Below, piece after piece: positions 4,723 to 22,356 of a stretch of 33,669 nucleotides of DNA. Positions within the stretch are counted from its first letter, which is position 1; the number at the start of each line of letters is the position of its first letter. The notes beneath the pieces are model-generated. The model saw only the letters and a list, made by a program, of their open reading frames with translations. It did not search any database and had not been told where the DNA came from. Source of the DNA: Lachnospiraceae bacterium (lineage in GTDB: Bacteria > Bacillota > Clostridia > Lachnospirales > Lachnospiraceae); assembly GCA_018056425.1 (NCBI GenBank), contig JAGPFR010000027.1, positions 1 through 33,669 on the forward strand. The letters are read 5' to 3'. The position numbers were made by a program, and so were the translations under genes.

Positions 4723-5556
4723 TCACATACCATGTATTTTAAGAAGCTTTGCGATATACGCTTTCTGATCGCGGCGTGACACTATCGCATCGATAAATCC
4801 GCATTCAAGAACCCGCTCCGCCTTTTGAAAATCCTTCGGAAGCGATCTGTTAAGACTTTTTTCTATAACTCTGGGACCGGCAAATCCTATCCTTGCTCCG
4901 GGTTCCGCAAGTGTAATATCTCCGAGCATCGCAAAGCTTGCATCCACTCCTCCCGTAGTCGGATTGGTCAGAAGAACAATATAAAGATTTCCTGCATTGG
5001 AGTGACGTTTTACCGCCGCGGAGACCTTGGACATCTGCATCAGGGATATCATTCCCTCCTGCATCCTCGCGCCTCCCGATACGGTTATGCCAATAACTGG
5101 CAGATTACGAAGAGTTGCATATTCAAAAACTGCCGCGATCTTCTCTCCGACCACAGCACCCATGGAGCCCATCATAAAATTCGAATCCATGGAATAGATA
5201 CATACCTTATGTCCGTCTATATCTGCTTCTCCGCAGATAACTCCTTCATTCTCCCTGCTCTTTTCCATTGCAGTGCGAAGCTTATCATCATATTCGGGGA
5301 ATCCGAGTGTGTTAACGGATTTTATATCCCTGTTCATTTCCACAAAGCTTCTTCTGTCAGTCAGCATCAGGATCCTGCGTCTTGCCCTCACCTGGAAATA
5401 ATGGCCGCAGTCGGGACATACAAAATTGTTATTCCTGATCCTGGTAACAGTATTTTTCCTGCCGCACTTCCTGCATGCGACTTTTCTGTCACGGCTTCCG
5501 GTGCCCGAATTTTCCAATTCGTTATTAGCCTTTAAGAATAATCTCTTTAATTCCAT
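4723..5556 (-). CDS. accD: Acetyl-CoA carboxylase carboxyltransferase, beta subunit
   Basis: About 277 residues. The N terminus carries the four-cysteine zinc ribbon typical of AccD (CRKCGRK ... CPDCGHYF, about residues 28-52). It is followed by the crotonase-fold carboxyltransferase core with MGSMGAVVGEKI and the GGARMQEGMISLMQM motif, then a NPTTGGVDASFAMLGD segment and AEPGARIGFAGPRVI. It pairs with AccA. I place the start at the ATG ending at 5556, just past the accC stop; a GTG two codons upstream (5562) overlaps the accC stop and is an alternative. The close packing with accC and accA fits stoichiometric production of the complex. Confidence 0.95.
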   Translation of the reverse strand: MELKRLFLKANNELENSGTGSRDRKVACRKCGRKNTVTRIRNNNFVCPDCGHYFQVRARRRILMLTDRRSFVEMNRDIKSVNTLGFPEYDDKLRTAMEKSRENEGVICGEADIDGHKVCIYSMDSNFMMGSMGAVVGEKIAAVFEYATLRNLPVIGITVSGGARMQEGMISLMQMSKVSAAVKRHSNAGNLYIVLLTNPTTGGVDASFAMLGDITLAEPGARIGFAGPRVIEKSLNRSLPKDFQKAERVLECGFIDAIVSRRDQKAYIAKLLKIHGM

Positions 5557-5558
5557 TT

Positions 5559-6887
5559 TCACAGAACCTTTTCACAAATGTCAGATTCGTAATTTCCTAC
5601 TATGAATCCCTCATTTTCAAGAATCTTCATATGCATTTCCCTGTTATTCTCAACGCCTACAAGTACGAATTCCGAAAGCGCGCTCTTCATCTTGCGTATC
5701 GCACCGTCCCTTGTATCTGCACAGACTATAAGCTTGCCGAGCATGGAATCATAAAAGGGAGTCACTTCACAGTTTTGATATAAAGCGGAATCAAACCTTA
5801 CATCGACACCTCCGGGAATATGCAGCATCTCAACCTTTCCTACCGCAGGTGTAAAGTTATCGGAATATTCCGCGCAGATCCTGCACTCGATCGCATGCCT
5901 CTTTCTTCCGATGTCTTCCTGCGAAAAAGAAAGCGTAATTCCCGCTGCAGTCCTTATCTGCCATTCAACTATATCTATGCCGCACACGGGTTCCGTGACC
6001 GAGTGTTCAACCTGGAGCCTCGTATTCATTTCCATAAAATAAAACTCTTCGCCCTTCACGAGAAACTCTACGGTTCCGACAGTCACATATCCGACTTCCG
6101 AAGCAAGCTTTCTTGCGGCATCGTACATGCGCTCCCTTGTCGTTTCACTTAATACGGGTGCAGGACATTCTTCTATCAATTTCTGGTTTCTTCTCTGAAC
6201 ACTGCAATCCCTGTCACCCAGTATCAGCACATTTCCGGCTGCATCCGCAAGGATCTGAATCTCGACATGCTTAACATGCTCAAGATATTTTTCCATGAAG
6301 ATTCCGTCATCTCCGAATGAATTAAGCGCTTCCTTTTGCACCTGTGAAAAACTGCACTCTATCTCGCTTTCGGAACGTATGATACGGATTCCCTTGCCTC
6401 CGCCTCCTGCTCTTGCTTTCAGGATTACCGGAAGACCGATTTTTTCCGCCTGTTTTTTTGCATCATCCGCATCCTTTAATATCCCGCTTCCGCTTGCAAC
6501 GGGAACATCGCACTTCATTGCAATGCTTCTTGCGACTTCCTTCTGTCCCATCTTCTCCATGACAGTTGAAGACGGTCCGATAAATACCAGTCCTTCTTTT
6601 TCACATGCTGCCGCAAACGCAGGATTTTCCGAAAGCATACCGTAACCGGGATGAACCGCTTCGGCTCCAGTCTTTTTGGCAACCGTAATAATAGCGTCTA
6701 TGTTAAGATAGCTGTCTTTTACCAGAGGACCCCCGATGCAGTAAGAACCATCTGCCATTTCCGCATGGAGGGCGTCCTTGTCCGCTTCCGAATAAACGGC
6801 AACGGTCTCTATTCCCATTTCTTTGCAGGCCCTTATTATCCTGACTGCAACCTCACCGCGATTGGCAATGAGAATTCTGGAAAACAT
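5559..6887 (-). CDS. accC: Acetyl-CoA carboxylase, biotin carboxylase subunit
   Basis: 442 residues from the ATG at 6885-6887. This start gives the classic MFSRILIANRGEVAVRII N terminus; AAGGAG lies within the last codons of fabZ, whose stop is one base upstream. The ATP-grasp enzyme carboxylates biotin on AccB using ATP and bicarbonate. Visible motifs: VHPGYGMLSENPAFA, the glycine-rich ATP loop KARAGGGGKGIRII, VEIQILAD, DRDCSVQRRNQKLIEE, and MNTRLQVEHSVTE with the catalytic region, then the biotin carboxylase C-terminal domain. Length and motif order match the family, with no missing catalytic residues noticed. Confidence 0.96.
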   Translation of the reverse strand: MFSRILIANRGEVAVRIIRACKEMGIETVAVYSEADKDALHAEMADGSYCIGGPLVKDSYLNIDAIITVAKKTGAEAVHPGYGMLSENPAFAAACEKEGLVFIGPSSTVMEKMGQKEVARSIAMKCDVPVASGSGILKDADDAKKQAEKIGLPVILKARAGGGGKGIRIIRSESEIECSFSQVQKEALNSFGDDGIFMEKYLEHVKHVEIQILADAAGNVLILGDRDCSVQRRNQKLIEECPAPVLSETTRERMYDAARKLASEVGYVTVGTVEFLVKGEEFYFMEMNTRLQVEHSVTEPVCGIDIVEWQIRTAAGITLSFSQEDIGRKRHAIECRICAEYSDNFTPAVGKVEMLHIPGGVDVRFDSALYQNCEVTPFYDSMLGKLIVCADTRDGAIRKMKSALSEFVLVGVENNREMHMKILENEGFIVGNYESDICEKVL

Positions 6888-15835: not shown

Positions 15836-16262
15836 AATTTCCCGAGCTTTTGTAAAACTTTATGCTGTATCTCCAAAACGCATATGCGAGGATATACATC
15901 ACGATTCCCAGAACGGGAGTGAGATACATAAAGATTCCGGGATATAATGACATGTCTTCTTTTCTCAATATAAACTGTGCGGGAAAATAATTAACAAATG
16001 CAAAAGGCACCACAAAGGTCATGCAAAACTGTATTGCCTTGTGGAATATGCTTATGGGATATCCCGCAAATTTTCTGGCGTTCCAGTAGAACACTTCCTT
16101 CAGGCTGTTTGTCTCCAGCAGATAAATATTAAGCGAAGCAAGGAATAAAAAAATGGCTCCCTGGATAAGAACTCCTCCGATTATGGAGAAGATATAATAA
16201 ACGATTCTCCATGGTGTCCATACCACTCCTATCTTTGCCGCAGAGAGAATAAAGAGCAGTAT
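15834..16262 (-). pseudogene. ABC-2 family permease, C-terminal remnant
   Basis: The - frame is open from the stop at 15834 up to at least 16262 and encodes about 140 residues with four hydrophobic segments. The sequence has the features of the last half of uncharacterised ABC-2 permeases (COG3694/DUF990-type, normally about 260 residues): a FLFLASLNIYLLETNSLKEV stretch, KFAGYPISIFHKAIQF, VVPFAFVNYFPAQFIL, and the terminal FWRYSIKFYKSSGN. The N-terminal half and any partner ATPase are missing. A GTG at 16224-16226 could start a 130-residue product but has no convincing ribosome binding site. Family-like sequence seems to run to about 16255-16262 and then meets an unrelated + strand gene. The gene is therefore truncated by deletion, or the join is an assembly artefact. 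Confidence 0.65.
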
Positions 16263-16516
16263 ACAGCGAGCTCTTCGACTATTACAAAAAAGAAAAGAAC
16301 ATCCTGCTTCTCGGTATCCTCGAGAACATGGGAGTTGAAAAAGAGATCAAACACAACATCTTATCCGAAGCACAGAAATCGACCAATTACGGAGAGATCA
16401 TCCAGAAGCTCAAAAACGTCAAGACCATGGAAACGAACGAGCCCCGCTTAAATCCCGGAGACGATTATATAATCCCTTCCAATTCGGGAGCCATCATACT
16501 TGGAGAAGAAAAATGA
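16253..16516 (+). pseudogene. 3' remnant of an unidentified gene upstream of the cyclic-nucleotide-binding gene
   Basis: The + frame opens directly after the TAA at 16250-16252 and reads RAVYSELFDYYKKEKNILLL and on through to the stop at 16514-16516. It looks coding from its first codons (charged, amphipathic, regular codon use) but has no start codon or ribosome binding site until an internal ATG at 16328. The last section is PRLNPGDDYIIPSNSGAIIL. I do not recognise the family. Its stop overlaps the next start as ATGA, so it was the upstream gene of the operon and has lost its 5' part and presumably its promoter at the junction near 16253-16262. Confidence 0.6.
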
Positions 16517-16998
16517 CTAAGTACACGGATAAGTTAAAAACATTTCCTTTGTTCGGAAAACTCTCCGACGCTGATCTTGATGATTTTGCTTCGCTTCTCG
16601 AAGAAGTGAAGGTGCCCGCAGGAACAAATGTGATCACGGAAGGCGAGACCGGATCGGATATGTATTTCCTTATTGAAGGAAATGTCGACATTATTAAAAC
16701 AACCATCTTCGGTGACAGTTTTATATGTGCGAGTCTCGGAAGCAAGGACGGTTGCGTATTCGGCGAGATGGCTCTTCTCGACAGCGATGAAAGATCCGCA
16801 ACAGTCAAAGCAAGAACAGGTTGTGTGGCACTCAGGATATCCAGAAATGATTTCGACAAATATGCCGAGTCACATCCTTCCGCAGGTGTATCGCTCCTCA
16901 AATTCATCGGTATCAATCTCGTGCGAAACATCAGACGTGAAAACGAAAATCTGAACCTTGTCTATCAGGCACTGATAGAAGAAATAGAATCAAATTAA
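16513..16998 (+). CDS. Cyclic nucleotide-binding domain protein
   Basis: 161 residues, almost entirely one Crp/cAMP-kinase-type beta-barrel. The N-terminal helix contains LFGKLSDADLDDFASLLEE, the barrel has GTNVITEGETGSDMYFLIEGNVDI, and the phosphate-binding cassette is CVFGEMALLDSDERSATVKA (about residues 81-100, with Glu85 and Arg94 in the positions that contact ribose and phosphate). A C-terminal helix (about 130-160) follows. There is no helix-turn-helix and no kinase domain, so it is a stand-alone sensor rather than a Crp-type regulator. The start overlaps the preceding stop (ATGA). It is 38 nt upstream of the hydrolase/ATP-grasp fusion gene, suggesting it senses a nucleotide for that enzyme. 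The bound nucleotide cannot be deduced. Confidence 0.88.
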   Translation: MTKYTDKLKTFPLFGKLSDADLDDFASLLEEVKVPAGTNVITEGETGSDMYFLIEGNVDIIKTTIFGDSFICASLGSKDGCVFGEMALLDSDERSATVKARTGCVALRISRNDFDKYAESHPSAGVSLLKFIGINLVRNIRRENENLNLVYQALIEEIESN

Positions 16999-17036
16999 TA
17001 TCTGCTTTTCACAAGAATATTTGGGGGTATGTATTA

Positions 17037-19517
17037 ATGTACAGAGTTGATGAACTTCTTTTAATCGAGCTTCTGACCTATATGCCGGGAAGCGCTCCTC
17101 TGATCTCAATCCTGGATGCGGAAGGAATGACGGTGGGAGATTATCTCCGGCAAATAGATCTGAATGCGCTGGATAACGAATACACATATTCCACACAGAT
17201 GAACGGATTTGATTTCAGGAATATCATCATGGCCATCCTGAACAATCCTAATGTTTCCGATTCGCGTATTCTCGAATCCCATCTCGACATGGCATACGGT
17301 GCAGGCGGCGGAATCTCAATCGTTGTCGTCAACGAAAAAGAAGAAGCTGACGAAAGCGGAAAGCACGAAGCGGTTGTTGCATTCAGGGGAACCGCCGACA
17401 GAGAGTGGACTGATGATTTCGAAGGTGCGGGACAGGTCGATTCTCTTCAACAGATAAATGCTCTCGAATGGTACAAGCAGGCATATGACAGAAACGATCT
17501 CGAAAAATACTTTGTGACCGTCATAGGTCATTCCAAGGGAGGAAACAAAGCAAAATATATCACCATCTTAAATGACACACCTGACAGATGTGTTTCTTTT
17601 GACGGACAGGGATTCTCCGATAAGTTCATCGATCATTACAAAAAGAGGATCATTGCACGTCAGTCCCTGATCACCAACCATAATATCGATTACGACTACG
17701 TCAACATTCTCATGAACGATATCGGGGAAAAGACGTATTATATCGGATATGATTACGGAAAGTACGGTTTTTCCGAATCACACGCCCCCAATACTTTCTT
17801 TGATTTCGGTGAGAACGGAGAATACAGCATCCGCATCAACCCGAACGGTCAGCGTCCCGAGATGCAGATCGTCGATCAATTCATCAACAGCATGATCCGT
17901 TCCGCTGTCAGTGAAAAAGAAAGCGAAGAGACCAACCGTCTTGTGGGAATGATCGTAGAGCGCGGATTTGCTCTTTCCAACGGCGGAAACATTACCGATT
18001 TCATCGCATTCCTGTGTGATATGATAGGTGACCCCAAGTATTCGGACAACGTTGCTTATCTCCTTGCATATTGCATTCTTTACTCGCGCAAAAATCCCAA
18101 CCTTCTCGAATCATTCAGAAGCATCATGACCGCTTTTAACGCACTTGATATTCTGAAAGTCATAGATATGGTTGACGACCTTATCAGTTCGAGAAAGCTC
18201 AACGCACTCCTCGGCCTTACAGATTTCCTTGTTGTTCACGTTAACAGGCCCATCGCAAAGAGCATCAGGAATATCGCCAGGAAAAAATATGATGTTGACC
18301 TGAAGCCCGAGCAGATCGGAAGCATCCTTAAGATCGCAACTCTCACAAGACAGATGATAGGATCTCTCGAACTTAATATGGACGGATCGGACCTTACCGT
18401 TGAAGATGTTGCCATTACCGACGATGAACTCAAGGAATTCGTCCTTCCCGGAAACCTCAACATAGTCGTACTTGCCGGAGGTCTCTCCAACGAAAGAAAC
18501 CTTTCACTCAAGACCGGCGTCACCGTTTCCGACATTCTCAGAAACCGCGGAAACAATGTTATCCTTCTTGATTCCTTTATGGGATATAACGAAACTGAAG
18601 AACTTCTTCCCGATGACGTATTTGCAGATCCCTATAAATATTCCCTCAATCCCGGCGATATCCCTAATGAGATCCCCGATCTGTGGGCAACAAGAAAGCG
18701 CAGAAAAGATCAGTCCGATGCATACTTCGGCCCCAATGTTTTGCAGATCTGCAGACAGTCCGATCTTATCTTCATAGCGCTTCACGGAGCGGAGGGTGAG
18801 AACGGTAAGGTTCAGGCTGCATTTGATCTTCTCGGACTCGATTACACGGGATGCGATTATTTCTCATCTGCGGTATCTTCCAATAAAGCAGCGGCTAAAC
18901 AGCTGATGCGAACTCTCGGAGTTCCCGTACCGGACGGATATACGATCAAAAAAGGCTCAGTGATCCCGAATCCCGAAGATCACGGCCTTACATTCCCGGT
19001 TATCGTCAAGCCTAATAACGGCGGAATCGGTGTGGGCATATCCATAGCAAGTGACATAACCGCATATGAAAAAGCAGTAAGAAATGCGTTCCGATGGGAT
19101 ACCGAGATCCTTATAGAAGAATACTTTACCGGAAGGGAATTTGCCGTATGCACCGTTGAGGGCAAAGCACTTCCCGTTCTCGAAAAACTCCCGCTCGAAA
19201 CAGCAGATAAAGAAAAAGGCCTCACCATGAGCGGTGAAACCGCAAATAAATGTCCTGCGGAGATCCCCGATGAGCTTGCCAAGGCCCTTCAGAAAGCAGC
19301 CGAGGATGCTGCCTTTGCTCTCGGAGTAAATGCATATGCGAAGATGGACTTTATCGTAGCAAACGATCTTAAGAGTTTTGTCTGTCTTGAGTGTGATTCG
19401 CTTCCTCAGCTCTATCCGGATTCACACCTGGTAATATCGGCAAAGGCCGCCGGAAGAAGCTTCGGCGACCTCTGTGATAAGATTATGGAAATGAGTCTTG
19501 TCAAAAAGTTCGGATGA
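17037..19517 (+). CDS. Mbeg1-like alpha/beta hydrolase fused to a divergent D-Ala-D-Ala-ligase-like ATP-grasp domain
   Basis: 826 residues; GGGGG at 17023-17027 precedes the ATG. Residues 1 to about 290 resemble Mbeg1-like lipase-fold proteins (DUF2974): AVVAFRGTADREWTDDFEGA, the nucleophile elbow VIGHSKGG (Ser166), a CVSFDGQGFS segment (possible Asp189) and ESHAPN (possible His249). About 290-465 is helical and unrecognised. About 474-826 is an ATP-grasp domain with D-Ala-D-Ala ligase architecture: VVLAGGLSNERNLSLKTG (Glu486), ALHGAEGENG (His583), NKAAAKQLMRTLGVPVPDG, VIVKPNNGG (Lys658), LIEEYFTGREF, and a metal site Asp771, Glu785, Asp787. Several substrate positions of true ligases are replaced: no EGSSVG serine, no YDY-K omega loop, Lys769 for the usual Arg, ECDSLPQ for the usual E-x-N-x-LPG. 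No signal peptide is seen, so it is probably cytoplasmic. It probably does not make D-Ala-D-Ala; the product is unknown. Confidence 0.82.
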   Translation: MYRVDELLLIELLTYMPGSAPLISILDAEGMTVGDYLRQIDLNALDNEYTYSTQMNGFDFRNIIMAILNNPNVSDSRILESHLDMAYGAGGGISIVVVNEKEEADESGKHEAVVAFRGTADREWTDDFEGAGQVDSLQQINALEWYKQAYDRNDLEKYFVTVIGHSKGGNKAKYITILNDTPDRCVSFDGQGFSDKFIDHYKKRIIARQSLITNHNIDYDYVNILMNDIGEKTYYIGYDYGKYGFSESHAPNTFFDFGENGEYSIRINPNGQRPEMQIVDQFINSMIRSAVSEKESEETNRLVGMIVERGFALSNGGNITDFIAFLCDMIGDPKYSDNVAYLLAYCILYSRKNPNLLESFRSIMTAFNALDILKVIDMVDDLISSRKLNALLGLTDFLVVHVNRPIAKSIRNIARKKYDVDLKPEQIGSILKIATLTRQMIGSLELNMDGSDLTVEDVAITDDELKEFVLPGNLNIVVLAGGLSNERNLSLKTGVTVSDILRNRGNNVILLDSFMGYNETEELLPDDVFADPYKYSLNPGDIPNEIPDLWATRKRRKDQSDAYFGPNVLQICRQSDLIFIALHGAEGENGKVQAAFDLLGLDYTGCDYFSSAVSSNKAAAKQLMRTLGVPVPDGYTIKKGSVIPNPEDHGLTFPVIVKPNNGGIGVGISIASDITAYEKAVRNAFRWDTEILIEEYFTGREFAVCTVEGKALPVLEKLPLETADKEKGLTMSGETANKCPAEIPDELAKALQKAAEDAAFALGVNAYAKMDFIVANDLKSFVCLECDSLPQLYPDSHLVISAKAAGRSFGDLCDKIMEMSLVKKFG

Positions 19518-19526
19518 TGTTTTTGT

Positions 19527-20435
19527 TCATCCCTTGAAATCGATATGACCTCCTACCATACGCTCGGCATCGGTCATAACATGACCGGCTGCATTATTGT
19601 AGGTATACGTCTGAACATTTCTTATCAGATCATCAAGAGTATGTGATGTAACAGTCACGTACTCTTTTTCTTCGGAAAGAACCTCATCGGGATCATCGCT
19701 TCCGATACGCTCTCCGGCTTCTTTTCTCTCGGCTCTTGCCTCTTCGCGTTTTTTCTCGATACGTTCTTTTTCAGCTTCCTTATGTGCTTTCTTTTCCTCG
19801 GCCTTCTTCTGAGCTTTCTTTTCTTCCGCTTTATGCTCTATGCGCTCTTTTTGAAGCTCCCGGGATTTTTCGATGGTGGCAAAGAATGATTCGTTTCCGC
19901 TGTCATCAACCGAAATACCAAAATTCCTGACAGCCGCTCCGCTGCTGGTCAGTGAATTCTTAGCCTCCAGGAGTTTGGCCTGAGACATGGCAATAATGCC
20001 TTCATACTTGTTGCGGTAATCCTCATCGGTCGCCATGCGCTCAAGTTTTTCTTCATCTATAAGCACGACCGGTTTATTGGCATTACCGTATGCTGCCGCA
20101 TTCTGCCTGACCTGAGCCATCATATCCTTGCTGACGACTATGAAATTCATGTTTCCGAATTTTGCTTTCAGCTTTTCATAGTAATCCGCTGCAGTGTCGG
20201 ACAGCTTAACGTCACCGACCGCATAGCCGTATTCAGTCTTACGGGGAATAAGGCTGCTTGTTTCTTTTAACGGATTCCAGGCTTTTATTTCGACCTTAGA
20301 TTTTGATACGCCGGTCTTTCCCGAAGATTCACTTTTTCCGGTTTCTGTGGTTTTTGCCGAATCGATACGAGATTGTCCTGTTTTCCAGGCTTCGGCATTC
20401 TGCTGATATGCAGAGATCTCATGAATACCCGCCAT
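19527..20435 (-). CDS. DUF6033-like protein with charged coiled coil
   Basis: 302 residues, function unknown. The N terminus MAGIHEISAYQQNAEAWKTG is followed by a Ser/Thr/Lys-rich low-complexity part (about 20-48), then KVEIKAWNPLKETSSLIPRK and a conserved-looking section (about 65-190) with LSDTAADYYEKLKAKFGNMNFIVVSKD and KPVVLIDEEKLERMATDE. Residues about 190-245 are a Glu/Lys/Ala/Arg-rich coiled coil. The tail is neutral with YVTVTSHTLDDL. This pattern fits DUF6033 proteins common in Lachnospiraceae; I recall the family by its look, not by alignment. No signal peptide or membrane helix. AAGGAGGT (20444-20451) is a near-perfect ribosome binding site. It is monocistronic and convergent with the fusion gene. 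Confidence 0.7.
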   Translation of the reverse strand: MAGIHEISAYQQNAEAWKTGQSRIDSAKTTETGKSESSGKTGVSKSKVEIKAWNPLKETSSLIPRKTEYGYAVGDVKLSDTAADYYEKLKAKFGNMNFIVVSKDMMAQVRQNAAAYGNANKPVVLIDEEKLERMATDEDYRNKYEGIIAMSQAKLLEAKNSLTSSGAAVRNFGISVDDSGNESFFATIEKSRELQKERIEHKAEEKKAQKKAEEKKAHKEAEKERIEKKREEARAERKEAGERIGSDDPDEVLSEEKEYVTVTSHTLDDLIRNVQTYTYNNAAGHVMTDAERMVGGHIDFKG

Positions 20436-20443
20436 AATTTTCT

Positions 20444-20530
20444 ACCTCCTTGTAGTATTAAACGGTTAAAGTGCCCTGACAAAAATCCGTTTCGTCCGCC
20501 TGCGCGTGGGCATAATATGGGCACTTTCAG
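20444..20530 (-). promoter_or_regulatory. Structured 5' leader of the DUF6033-like gene
   Basis: On the minus strand AAAGTGCCC (20527-20519) and GGGCACTTT (20476-20468) form a perfect 9-bp closing stem. Two smaller hairpins can fold between them: CGC-GCAG-GCG, and one closed by GAC/GTC with a U-rich loop. The outer stem begins within a few bases of the predicted transcript start and ends 16 bases before the ribosome binding site. A three-way-junction leader that could expose or hide the Shine-Dalgarno is plausible. It does not match the riboswitch consensus sequences I know. Confidence 0.4.
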
Positions 20531-20538
20531 TTATCCGT

Positions 20539-20567
20539 ATTATATATCGGCAGCCGTCCGGATAATC
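20539..20567 (-). promoter_or_regulatory. Promoter of the DUF6033-like gene
   Basis: A perfect TATAAT lies at 20544-20539 on the minus strand, with a weak GATTAT at the -35 position 17 bases away. The -10 box is flanked by an inverted repeat, TTATCCG (20531-20537) and CGGATAA (20559-20565), a possible operator. Confidence 0.5.
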
Positions 20568-20592
20568 TTTATATCTTTTTTTATATAATGTG

Positions 20593-20621
20593 TTGACATA
20601 CTTCATCTGTCGTAGTATATT
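20593..20621 (+). promoter_or_regulatory. Strong sigma-A promoter of the former padR operon
   Basis: TTGACA (20593-20598) and TATATT (20616-20621) are exactly 17 bases apart. The spacer ends in GTCGTAGTA, a motif repeated twice more just downstream (20629-20661), so the promoter is overlapped by regulator sites. Confidence 0.75.
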
Positions 20622-20628
20622 TACCCCA

Positions 20629-20661
20629 TCAGACATAGTACGACAGTCGTAGTACGTCTGA
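20629..20661 (+). promoter_or_regulatory. 33-bp near-perfect palindrome at the transcription start (probable PadR operator)
   Basis: Centred on 20645, TCAGAC plus ATAGTACGAC on the left mirrors GTCGTAGTAC plus GTCTGA on the right, with two mismatches in 16 paired positions. It lies right after the -10 element of a strong promoter and in front of a gene whose first 18 or so codons are those of a PadR regulator, which usually autoregulate. The site fits an operator; which protein binds it now is unknown because the regulator gene is deleted. Confidence 0.6.
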
Positions 20662-20756
20662 CGTGGTACTAAAAACAAACCTGACGAGGCAAGTGAGCGG
20701 TCCGGCCGGCCGCAGTACCATGTAAAACCAAGAAACCTATTAACAGGAGGAAGAAA

Positions 20757-20843
20757 ATGGTAGAGATCAGCAGTGATGTGATCCGCGGTTACAACGATAC
20801 AATGATTCTCTGCATGCCGGAAATATCGAAATTAAGGATATGA
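20757..20843 (+). pseudogene. PadR-family regulator, N-terminal stub
   Basis: The ATG at 20757 follows a strong AGGAGG (20745-20750). The first 18 codons read MVEISSDVIRGYNDTMIL, which is the characteristic N terminus of PadR regulators (helix 1 of the winged helix). The sequence then departs from the family and stops after 28 codons. The point of departure (about 20811) coincides with the start of DUF4097-like sequence in another frame. This is a deletion fusion: most of padR is gone, while its promoter, operator and ribosome binding site remain. The stop overlaps the next ATG as ATGA. Confidence 0.7.
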
Positions 20844-21067
20844 CCGCAGATAAAGCAACCATAAGTGCGGATGCCGGAAACATCGATCTTAAAGATTGTT
20901 CGATCGAATTATTCTACGCAGATGCCGATGCCGGAAACATCGAAACTCATGGCTGCACCATAGGCAGCGGAGAAGTTAAGACCGATCTCGGAAATATCGA
21001 TCTTGGCGGAGACATCGGAGATGTTCAGACACACACATCTCTCGGAATCGTAAATGTAGATAACTGA
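20840..21067 (+). pseudogene. DUF4097-like protein, C-terminal fragment
   Basis: The frame reads from about 20813 (HAGNIEIKDM) into an ATG at 20840 and on for 75 residues. It shows the repeated short-strand pattern of DUF4097 beta-helix proteins: SADAGNIDLKDC, ADADAGNIETHGC, KTDLGNIDLGG, HTSLGIVNVDN. Full-length members are typically about 250-350 residues, so only the last repeats survive. PadR genes are frequently followed by a HAAS/DUF1700 gene and a DUF4097 gene; a deletion from within padR to within the DUF4097 gene explains this arrangement. The fragment could still be translated by coupling to the padR stub. Confidence 0.7.
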
Positions 21068-21087
21068 ATGATAATATAAATGTGATC

Positions 21088-21138
21088 AAAAGGGACGCAT
21101 CTTTCGGCATGGATCTTCTGCCTATAGATGCGTCCCTT
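21088..21138. terminator. Terminator between the DUF4097 fragment and the secreted-protein pseudogene
   Basis: AAGGGACGCATCT (21090-21102) pairs fully with AGATGCGTCCCTT (21126-21138); a smaller GGCA/TGCC stem sits in the loop. On the minus strand the stem is followed by TTTT, ending the gene at 21149; on the + strand it lies 20 bases after the DUF4097 stop. Confidence 0.75.
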
Positions 21139-21148
21139 AGTTATCCGG

Positions 21149-22356
21149 TTATTTCCTGATCCTTATATCCGTAAGAGCCACCTGATCCCCTGTGACTGAA
21201 ACGTATATATTCTTATTATTATCGCGAATGGTAGTAATATTGGTAATGGAGATACCACCATTTTCGGTTTCTGTGATGATCTTATTTTTCATCCGTGAAA
21301 ACCTTACCATACATTCAAATCCTTTTCTGTTAAGTTTCTTCCAGTTCTCCCAGGTTGTAAACTCCTTACCTTTATTCACCTCATTCCTGTTCTCGGAAGA
21401 ATCTCCCCCTCCCTGTGCCTCGCCGTCCAATCGGATCATTGCATATTCCTTATACCCTCTTCCCATGACGGTTCCGTCATCCGAGGTATAAAGCAGAATA
21501 AAGGGACAATGCCATACAAGATTGGCAGACGGAAGACTCATTGTGTGGAAAATAAGTCTCATACCGTCCTTTACTTTAACTCCCTGTGTGTAATCACTTC
21601 GGTTACTGTCAATCTGGACATTGGGTATATCACTCTCAAGCCTGTTTATATAACTGATTTCTTCGGATATTCTGGGTATTTCTTCTTCAGGCATCTTCTT
21701 GCCGGTTTTTTCAACCTCGATGGATGAAATATGACAATTCTCACCTGTAAGTCCGATGTATGCATATTTGGAACTGTCCGGAAGTGCGATCACAACTTCG
21801 GACATATAACCCTTACCTTCCAGCTTGACATATACATGGTCACGGTTTCTTGCAACCTCTACGAAATATGTCTCATCTTCATCCTGCCTGATCTCCTCAA
21901 TGGAGATAAGCTTCATATTTCGTGCCTCCGAACATACAAAATGTCCGTCAAACCATATTTCTCCAAATTCGGAATATCTGGTATCTTTAATCGCCCTGTC
22001 AGTATCATGTACTCTTTCATCGAGAGAATCGAATAGGATAACCGCAGGACCCGAGAAAGGATTCTCTTCATCCAAAGGACTTGCACTGAAAGCGATTATC
22101 TTTTTCTCAGGTCTGATCCTTATTCCGTATGATATGGCACTCCTGTATTCTTCACAGGTAAATTCATTCTTAAATATCGTATCTACATTTTCCGTCTCTT
22201 CCTTCATCTGATAATCAACATCACTGTCGATCAGCTGAAGCATGTAACTCGTATATTTCCCGCGAATACGGGCATATATAACAGACAGGAGGAAAGAAAA
22301 ACTCCCGCAACCATCTGCGCAATCCGTCTTCCGGTTTTTCTATTTATTACGATCAT
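21149..22356 (-). pseudogene. Secreted protein of unknown function, interrupted by a frameshift after the signal peptide
   Basis: A well-formed start (ATG 22354-22356, GGAGG nine bases upstream) opens MIVINRKTGRRIAQMVAGVF, then a hydrophobic run ending LYMPVFAGN: a signal peptide with a VFA/G cleavage site. That frame stops at 22231. One extra base in the AAA run (22256-22258) would join it to the long frame as FAGKYTSYMLQLIDSDVDYQ, giving a mature protein of about 370 residues down to 21149. The body is beta-rich and includes FSASPLDEENPFSGPAVILF, EIWFDGHFVCSEARNMKLI and SLPSANLVWHCPFILLYTSDDG. I do not recognise a family. It may be a true frameshift or a sequencing indel. The gene is 15 nt downstream of the small membrane protein gene, so they form an operon. 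Confidence 0.55.

What the first reader, a model, noticed from the sequence alone, without database searches (positions are those of the whole stretch)
17037..19517. Lipase-fold hydrolase fused to a non-canonical D-Ala-D-Ala-ligase-like ATP-grasp domain
One 826-residue chain joins an Mbeg1-like hydrolase (GHSKG elbow, Ser166) to an ATP-grasp domain of Ddl architecture. The nucleotide and metal residues look intact (Lys658, Asp771, Glu785), but positions known in Ddl to bind D-Ala are changed: EGSSVG is NNGGIGVG, the YDY-K omega loop is absent, the Arg before the metal Asp is Lys769, and E-x-N-x-LPG is ECDSLPQ. It may build or edit an unusual peptide or ester, with one domain making and the other cutting a bond. 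With the cyclic-nucleotide-binding gene directly upstream it is the best candidate here for an undescribed system.
Basis: partly seen in the sequence, partly recalled or inferred. Interest (0 to 1): 0.75.

Follow-up and report, generated by a model that had tools for sequence, protein, structure and literature searches.

The report
Lipase fused to repurposed wall ligase
In some gut bacteria, including wall-less ones, a lipase-type enzyme is fused to a cell-wall ligase that has lost its wall-building residues but kept its ATP site, and it travels with a cyclic-nucleotide-binding protein and an ion channel as an apparently undescribed three-part module.

Summary
In detail: one 826-residue protein joins an Mbeg1-like hydrolase to a Ddl-type ATP-grasp domain without the D-Ala-binding residues. 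It occurs in 15 of 31 genomes of the window's genus, 15 of 160 of the order of wall-less Anaeroplasma and one Bacteroidota genome.

The hydrolase half has relatives in type VII secretion loci (WXG100 genes found in 3 of 7 relative loci fetched); the fusion has the Ddl domain where five such relatives have an 86-108-residue tail. The ATP-grasp domain descends from MurF-linked Lachnospiraceae Ddls. The window's genome has a separate Ddl near a MurF-like gene.

The fusion belongs to a module: RCK channel, cNMP-binding protein, fusion. In this window the channel is a 3' remnant. In two Anaeroplasma genomes the channel-cNMP pair lies apart from the fusion but is kept. Six ATP/metal residues are intact in 25 of 25 fusions from channel-bearing lineages and decay in one clade without the channel, while the lipase residues stay.

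Best reading: an intracellular lipase controlled by an ATP-binding former ligase, working with the channel. Function is untested.

The parts
17037..19517 (+). fusion gene, 826 aa: Mbeg1-like hydrolase + helical middle + Ddl-derived ATP-grasp domain
17037..17906 (+). hydrolase domain, residues 1-290; Ser166 (17532-17534), Asp220 and His249 invariant
   Evidence: triad assignment by analogy with TslA S164/D224/H251 (PMC10730906, passages)
17907..18440 (+). middle part, residues 291-468 (helical by inference); shared to about residue 455 with hydrolase-only relatives
18453..19499 (+). Ddl-derived ATP-grasp domain, residues 473-821; Lys658, Gly loop 662-667, Asp771, Glu785, Asp787 kept; D-Ala-binding residues replaced
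16513..16998 (+). cNMP-binding protein, 161 aa, phosphate-binding cassette GEMALLDSDERSATV present
16214..16513 (+). 3' remnant of the RCK channel gene (residues 294-393 of 393), not a working gene in this assembly
16261..22255 (.). block collinear with relative L041 (less a 1.8-kb stretch at 20814); both edges lie inside genes (channel; HD-domain gene), so rearranged or chimeric here

Best explanation
The protein is an intracellular lipase-type hydrolase, of a kind also found in type VII secretion loci, in which the C-terminal tail has been replaced by a Lachnospiraceae D-Ala-D-Ala ligase. That ligase lost its D-Ala chemistry but kept its Mg-ATP site. It is the effector of a three-part module with a 2TM-RCK ion channel that lacks the K+ filter and with a small cyclic-nucleotide-binding protein. 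Proposed working: the small protein senses a cyclic nucleotide (cAMP is the likeliest), the ATP-grasp domain reads Mg-ATP, and together they set the activity of the lipase domain and/or the channel at the membrane. Shown here: domain make-up, ancestry, loss and retention of residues, purifying selection, and co-inheritance with channel and cNMP protein. Inferred: phospholipase activity, intracellular location, ATP sensing rather than ligation, cAMP as ligand, and physical coupling to the channel.
For: Ancestry: 25 fusion C-domains form one clade (SH-aLRT 100) inside MurF-linked Lachnospiraceae Ddls, on a stem of 0.87 changes per column (quick method, SH-aLRT only). Of 18 stand-alone relatives fetched, 17 have the MurF-like gene next door; two of those neighbours were family-scanned and pass the MurF cut-off. 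Residues: DdlB S150, S151, K215, N272 and G276 are kept in 31 of 31 Ddls compared (13 canonical, 18 MurF-type); the 22 fusions keep none of them, except K215 in one; K144 and E180 are kept in all 53. Wall-less hosts: the fusion is the only Ddl-N protein in 3 of 3 Anaeroplasma/Acholeplasmatales genomes tested; these have 0, 1 and 1 Mur-ligase-type matches, and the two matches are FolC. Module: channel and cNMP gene stand upstream in 19 of 21 Lachnospiraceae loci; the other two have no upstream sequence. The 15 of 31 genus genomes with the fusion are the same 15 with a channel match, a remnant in the window's genome. In the Anaeroplasma order 9 of 160 genomes have the channel, all among the 15 with the fusion. 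In 7 of the 9 the three genes are contiguous; in 2 the channel-cNMP pair lies on another contig, with other genes beside it. ATP site: K617, K658, E694, D771, E785, D787 and four loop glycines are kept in 25 of 25 fusions of channel-bearing lineages. In 6 orphans D771 is kept in 1 and E785 in 2, while S166, D220 and H249 stay in 6 of 6. dN/dS 0.017-0.10 in eight pairs. Hydrolase kinship: about 38% identity over residues 4-460 (L080) and 21-453 (L110) to proteins beside WXG100 genes. A class III cyclase domain occurs in 17 of 17 channel-bearing genomes searched.
Against: The orphans form one clade (86/88), so channel loss and site decay may be a single event; the independent-pairs test is uninformative. 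The Minthosoma fusion keeps the ATP site without a close channel. A seventh nucleotide-side residue, E701, is Gln in both Anaeroplasma proteins (kept in 23 of 25), and on the substrate side E486 and H583 are still kept in 23 and 22 of 25, so the contrast between the two sides is modest and residual ligation is possible. In Lachnospiraceae, co-occurrence is expected from linkage alone. The cyclase domain is also in 4 of 6 orphan and 4 of 6 fusion-less genus genomes. Only 3 of 7 hydrolase-relative loci fetched showed WXG100 genes by scan. Completeness of the Anaeroplasma-order genomes is not told, so absences are soft. The window's own channel is a remnant. No structure could be predicted, and no solved relative of the hydrolase was found.
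Confidence: 0.45

Rival explanations
1. A bifunctional make-and-break enzyme: the ATP-grasp half ligates a new amino-acid or peptide substrate and the hydrolase half cleaves the same bond (the first reader's idea; glutathionylspermidine synthetase/amidase, recalled, is an analogue). The product could be a ligand of the channel.
For: Six ATP/metal residues are complete in 25 of 25 fusions of channel-bearing lineages, and the DdlB E15 and H63 equivalents are kept in 23 and 22 of 25. R255 became Lys in 19 of 22, keeping the charge. The ligase half is under strong purifying selection.
Against: S150 and G276 equivalents are gone in 22 of 22 fusions and K215 in 21 of 22. In the two Anaeroplasma proteins, whose genomes have channel and cNMP genes, the E15, H63 and R255 equivalents are lost while six ATP/metal residues stay (E701 is Gln). 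The hydrolase relatives are lipase-like, not amidases, by annotation.
Confidence: 0.25
2. An anti-phage or programmed-death module: the cyclic-nucleotide sensor triggers a channel and a phospholipase, both membrane-damaging.
For: Patchy distribution (15 of 31 in the genus; 15 of 160 in the Anaeroplasma order) and presence in three phyla; the cNMP protein's closest PADLOC models are Pycsar TIR effectors. In three genomes a class III cyclase gene lies about 5-11 kb from the fusion or its operon.
Against: That PADLOC match covers only the cNMP fold. Fusion and channel match no PADLOC model. The three-gene unit itself holds no cyclase; flanking genes were scanned only in part. No match in the phage and plasmid records or viral contigs searched.
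Confidence: 0.15
3. A secreted antibacterial effector of a type VII secretion system.
For: The hydrolase half plus the middle part is shared with proteins in loci with WXG100 genes (3 of 7 relative loci); an Anaeroplasma gene beside the fusion is homologous to the accessory gene of those loci (E down to 3e-13).
Against: The tail of five such relatives is replaced by the Ddl domain in the fusion. No WXG100 or EssC-type gene among nine neighbours of the fusion scanned in the window. The hydrolase-only loci read here show no channel-cNMP pair by eye.
Confidence: 0.08
4. An ordinary D-Ala-D-Ala ligase for peptidoglycan that happens to be fused to a hydrolase.
For: Ddl domains and ancestry.
Against: Catalytic residues lost; below the TIGR01205 cut-off (185.1 against 245.65); a canonical Ddl near a MurF-like gene is present in the same genome; the fusion is kept in three genomes with no Mur ligase found.
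Confidence: 0.02

Closest known systems
D-Ala-D-Ala ligase (Ddl), MurF-linked Lachnospiraceae type; reference E. coli DdlB
   Same: Domain order, ATP/metal residues (K97, K144, E180, D257, E270 equivalents), about 38-46% identity to the 18 stand-alone Lachnospiraceae enzymes fetched.
   Different: S150, S151, K215, Y216, R255, N272 and G276 equivalents replaced; fused behind a hydrolase; the window's fusion is not beside a Mur gene; kept in three genomes without Mur ligases.
TslA-type type VII secretion lipases (PMC10730906; abstract and passages seen)
   Same: N-terminal lipase domain with Ser-Asp-His order and similar spacing (S166/D220/H249 against S164/D224/H251); some relatives of the hydrolase lie beside WXG100 genes and lipoprotein-like genes.
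   Different: The C-terminal tail is replaced by an ATP-grasp domain; channel and cNMP partners; TslA itself was not fetched or aligned.
2TM-RCK channels (MthK; plant CASTOR/DMI1, PMC6697748, passages seen)
   Same: Pore region followed by an RCK domain; PDB matches MthK E 9e-5 and CASTOR E 0.0025. GN of the filter region is shared with the CASTOR filter ADS(A)GNHA.
   Different: Filter region reads GNDY in 28 of 28, not TVGYG; the CASTOR filter Asp265 is not at the matching place; cNMP partner protein.
cNMP-binding proteins of the CRP/Pycsar-effector fold
   Same: Phosphate-binding cassette GEMA..D.D.RS in 28 of 28.
   Different: Stand-alone 160-aa protein; only the cNMP domain was found by Pfam; highly conserved C-terminal tail.

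Membership tests
D-Ala-D-Ala ligase (Ddl) | Ddl N and C domains over the curated Pfam cut-offs | tested here: met
   62.9 against 34.6 bits and 82.3 against 24 bits
D-Ala-D-Ala ligase (Ddl) | NCBIfam family cut-off (TIGR01205, 245.65 bits) | tested here: not met
   185.1 bits; the canonical Ddl of the same genome scores 277.9
D-Ala-D-Ala ligase (Ddl) | Ser150/Tyr216 pair, Arg255, Gly276 of DdlB | tested here: not met
   window I664/T730, K769, Q791; role of Ser150 and Tyr216 from PMC7691350 (passages), roles of the others recalled
D-Ala-D-Ala ligase (Ddl) | ATP/metal residues | tested here: met
   K617, K658, E694, D771, E785 kept in the window; N272 is Asp787; roles recalled
D-Ala-D-Ala ligase (Ddl) | Makes D-Ala-D-Ala | not testable with these tools
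   needs purified protein
TslA-type type VII lipase | N-terminal lipase domain with Ser-Asp-His | tested here: met
   the assignment of the Asp is by spacing and invariance
TslA-type type VII lipase | C-terminal helical export domain | tested here: not met
   tail replaced by the ATP-grasp domain
TslA-type type VII lipase | WXG100-type partner genes nearby | tested here: not met
   none among nine neighbours of the fusion scanned in the window; flanks of the other loci were not scanned one by one
2TM-RCK channel (partner gene, from relatives) | RCK/TrkA-N domain after the pore region | tested here: met
   the two membrane helices are read from the alignment to MthK, not predicted
2TM-RCK channel (partner gene, from relatives) | TVGYG potassium filter | tested here: not met
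   GNDY in 28 of 28
Pycsar | Dedicated pyrimidine cyclase beside the effector | tested here: inconclusive
   none inside the three-gene unit; flanks only partly scanned; a class III cyclase is elsewhere in the genomes and 5-11 kb away in three; PADLOC match only through the cNMP fold

The most novel reading that the evidence does not exclude
A new kind of cyclic-nucleotide signalling module: a cell-wall ligase turned into an ATP gauge, grafted in place of the tail of a type VII-type lipase, so that an intracellular phospholipase and an unusual cation channel answer to cAMP and ATP together. It has moved between Lachnospiraceae, wall-less Mollicutes and, in part, Bacteroidota.
Probability: 0.3. 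Interest if true: 0.82.

Novelty: new variant of a known kind. Interest (0 to 1): 0.62.

Why it matters
It shows an essential cell-wall enzyme turned to another use and kept in bacteria that have no wall, where D-Ala-D-Ala has no known use. The module gives a definite partner set (channel, cNMP protein, lipase/ATP-grasp), and a natural comparison: a clade without the channel whose ATP site has decayed while the lipase residues stay. That makes the question of what the ATP-grasp half does directly testable. It also warns that a Ddl family match in a wall-less bacterium need not mean D-Ala-D-Ala synthesis.

Tried and rejected
A profile of the hydrolase domain found no solved relative at E 0.01 or better. 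Phage, plasmid and viral collections gave no relative. The idea that the fusion is the peptidoglycan Ddl was rejected (see rivals). The idea that the stand-alone relatives share the new function was rejected: the 18 fetched keep the Ddl residues tabled as the canonical enzymes do, and 17 of 18 have a MurF-like gene next door. A statistical test of channel loss against loss of the metal site was attempted and is uninformative, since the orphans are one clade. Relative divergence of the two halves does not separate orphans cleanly from the rest, because Anaeroplasma is as high. Literature: (Mbeg1-like; DUF2974; ATP-grasp with Ddl, fusion and lipase; ion channel with cNMP-binding, ATP-grasp, operon and rumen; pseudoenzyme with ATP-grasp and regulatory domain) gave no paper that I recognised from the listings as describing the fusion or the module. 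I saw passages of three papers only; the library is open-access PMC only.

Rows left out: of the window plus 25 loci, four (L039, L043, L053, L058) were not put in alignment A1 because of an uncertain start or a cut end; L135 and L136 hold only part of the fusion and were not counted for the ATP-grasp sites; seven near-identical fusions were dropped from the tree; L136 was left out of the tree; L048 was left out of the cNMP alignment. Of the stand-alone Ddl-type matches only 18 were fetched. The channel-bearing set of 25 counts the window, whose channel is a remnant.
Full report
1. The observation. Window 17037-19517 encodes one 826-residue protein with an Mbeg1-like hydrolase segment and both Ddl domains. 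The omega-loop stretch is not deleted; its YDYxxKY residues are replaced.

2. Distribution. A scan of one genome per species, by exact short peptides and so a lower bound, found 25 loci: Lachnospiraceae (21, most with rumen or omasum in the record title), two Anaeroplasma, another Acholeplasmatales genome and Candidatus Minthosoma (lineages). In the window's genus 15 of 31 genomes carry the fusion, in one of them split over two contigs. In a sample of 397 genomes of the family, 22 match the hydrolase half; only the two genus members sampled, G000 and G027, have the fusion-type full-length match, and one weak match (G265) lies in a 1382-aa frame that I did not examine. In the order of Anaeroplasma 15 of 160 genomes carry the fusion: 13 complete, one cut by a contig end (G578), and one that stops 35 bases before its contig end (G616). 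Another 13 of the 160 have a weak match, mostly of stand-alone Ddl size, so not every member of that order need be wall-less.

3. Where the two halves come from. The C-domain of the fusions is one clade inside the MurF-linked Ddls of Lachnospiraceae (quick tree, SH-aLRT only). The neighbour of the stand-alone enzymes fetched is a MurF-like gene in 17 of 18 cases (two checked by family scan and over the MurF cut-off). All 31 Ddls compared keep DdlB S150, S151, K215, N272 and G276, and 30 of 31 keep R255 and Y216; the 22 fusions keep none of S150, S151, Y216, R255, N272 and G276, and K215 in one. K144 and E180 are kept in all 22, D257 and E270 in 21 of 22; N272 is Asp in all 22. The hydrolase half plus the middle part is 38% identical to three proteins of 538-559 aa over most of residues 4-460, and 36% to a fourth over residues 4-392. 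WXG100 genes over the Pfam cut-off were found in 3 of the 7 relative loci fetched (L080, L110, L111), with an FtsK/SpoIIIE-type ATPase in L110 and a relative of it in L111; the other four loci were not scanned for them. At the point where five such proteins continue with an 86-108-residue tail, the fusion continues with the Ddl domain. The published lipase TslA has the same order, N-terminal phospholipase A with S164/D224/H251 and a C-terminal export domain (PMC10730906, passages); here S166, D220 and H249 are invariant in 14 of 14 hydrolase domains aligned, though one further paralogue, L110:2562-4193, lacks the His region. That these form the triad, and that the activity is phospholipase A, is inference. 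TslA itself was not aligned.

4. Not peptidoglycan. The window's genome has a separate Ddl that passes the family cut-off (277.9 against 245.65); a gene whose best match is MurF, below that family's cut-off (224.7 against 288.6), lies two genes before it. In three Anaeroplasma/Acholeplasmatales genomes the fusion is the only Ddl-N protein, and Mur-ligase-type matches number 1, 0 and 1; the two matches are FolC. Mollicutes have no wall (established knowledge). The other genomes of that order were not tested for Mur ligases.

5. The module. In Lachnospiraceae the order is channel, cNMP-binding gene, fusion: both upstream genes are found in 19 of 21 loci, and the other two have no upstream sequence, in several different outer neighbourhoods. 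The 15 genus genomes with a channel match are exactly those with the fusion, the window's genome having only the remnant; linkage alone could explain that. In the Anaeroplasma order all 9 genomes with the channel are among the 15 with the fusion. Seven have the three genes side by side. Anaeroplasma bactoclasticum and a related genome have the channel-cNMP pair on another contig, with other genes beside it, so the set is kept without close linkage. The channel has an RCK domain and its pore region reads GNDY in 28 of 28, not TVGYG. The cNMP protein keeps its phosphate-binding cassette in 28 of 28. A class III cyclase domain occurs in 17 of 17 channel-bearing genomes searched, but also in 4 of 6 orphans and 4 of 6 fusion-less genus genomes, and not in Minthosoma.

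6. What the ATP-grasp half does. In 25 fusions from channel-bearing lineages (the window counted, though its channel is a remnant) six ATP/metal residues and four loop glycines are invariant; a seventh, E701, is kept in 23. On the substrate side E486 is kept in 23, H583 in 22 and K769 in 22. In six genomes of the Anaeroplasma order with no channel match, D771 is kept in 1 of 6 and E785 in 2 of 6, while the hydrolase residues are kept in 6 of 6. These six form one clade (86/88), so this is probably one loss followed by decay. The independent-pairs test has no power. Minthosoma, with no close channel, keeps the ATP site: a case against a strict rule. Divergence of the C-domain relative to the hydrolase is 1.44 among orphans, 1.21 among trio members of the same order and 1.03 among Lachnospiraceae, but also 1.47 between Anaeroplasma and Lachnospiraceae. 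In eight Lachnospiraceae pairs, which share sequences and have dS near or above 1 in most, dN/dS of the C-domain is 0.017-0.10. So the domain is under selection there. ATP binding is what is best preserved; I favour a regulatory ATP-binding role over ligation, without strong confidence.

7. The window itself. The block 16261-22255 is collinear with relative L041, minus a 1.8-kb stretch at 20814 that holds most of a PadR-type operon there. Both edges of the block fall inside genes, the channel and an HD-domain gene. No other copy of the channel was found in the genome, which is about 91% complete. Either the strain has lost its channel by rearrangement or the contig is chimeric.

8. Verdict. 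Real, recurrent, and part of what appears to be an undescribed three-gene module built from known domains. It fails defining tests of both a Ddl and a TslA-type secreted lipase. Mechanism unproven.

Noticed in passing
window 16214-16513 and 22255: The channel gene is cut to its last 100 codons and an HD-domain gene is cut at the other edge of a 6-kb block; true rearrangement or chimeric contig.
   Followed up: partly
L059:7274-7984 and L055:304-822: Gene directly before the Anaeroplasma fusion is homologous to the accessory gene of hydrolase loci with WXG100 genes, some of which look like lipoproteins by eye; in L059 no lipoprotein signal is seen by eye, so it may be an intracellular inhibitor.
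   Followed up: partly
G563:C79, G569:C62, G584:C5: A class III cyclase gene lies on the same contig as the fusion, about 5-11 kb away, in three genomes of the Anaeroplasma order.
   Followed up: no
L110:2562-4193 and 5009-6637: Two lipase-like paralogues close together in a WXG100 locus, one lacking the His249 region.
   Followed up: no
cNMP protein, window 16888-16995: Its C-terminal tail is highly conserved from Lachnospiraceae to the Anaeroplasma order (RN.R.EN.NL.L.YQALI.EIE), perhaps a contact surface.
   Followed up: no
L118:1860-3971: Minthosoma encodes a 703-aa protein with a weak match to the channel (24%), perhaps of the larger CASTOR-like kind.
   Followed up: no
window 19527-20435: A DUF6033 gene follows the fusion on the opposite strand here, with homologues near the fusion in five other loci.
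   Followed up: no
L043:6402-7497: The channel gene of this relative is in two pieces in different frames.
   Followed up: no
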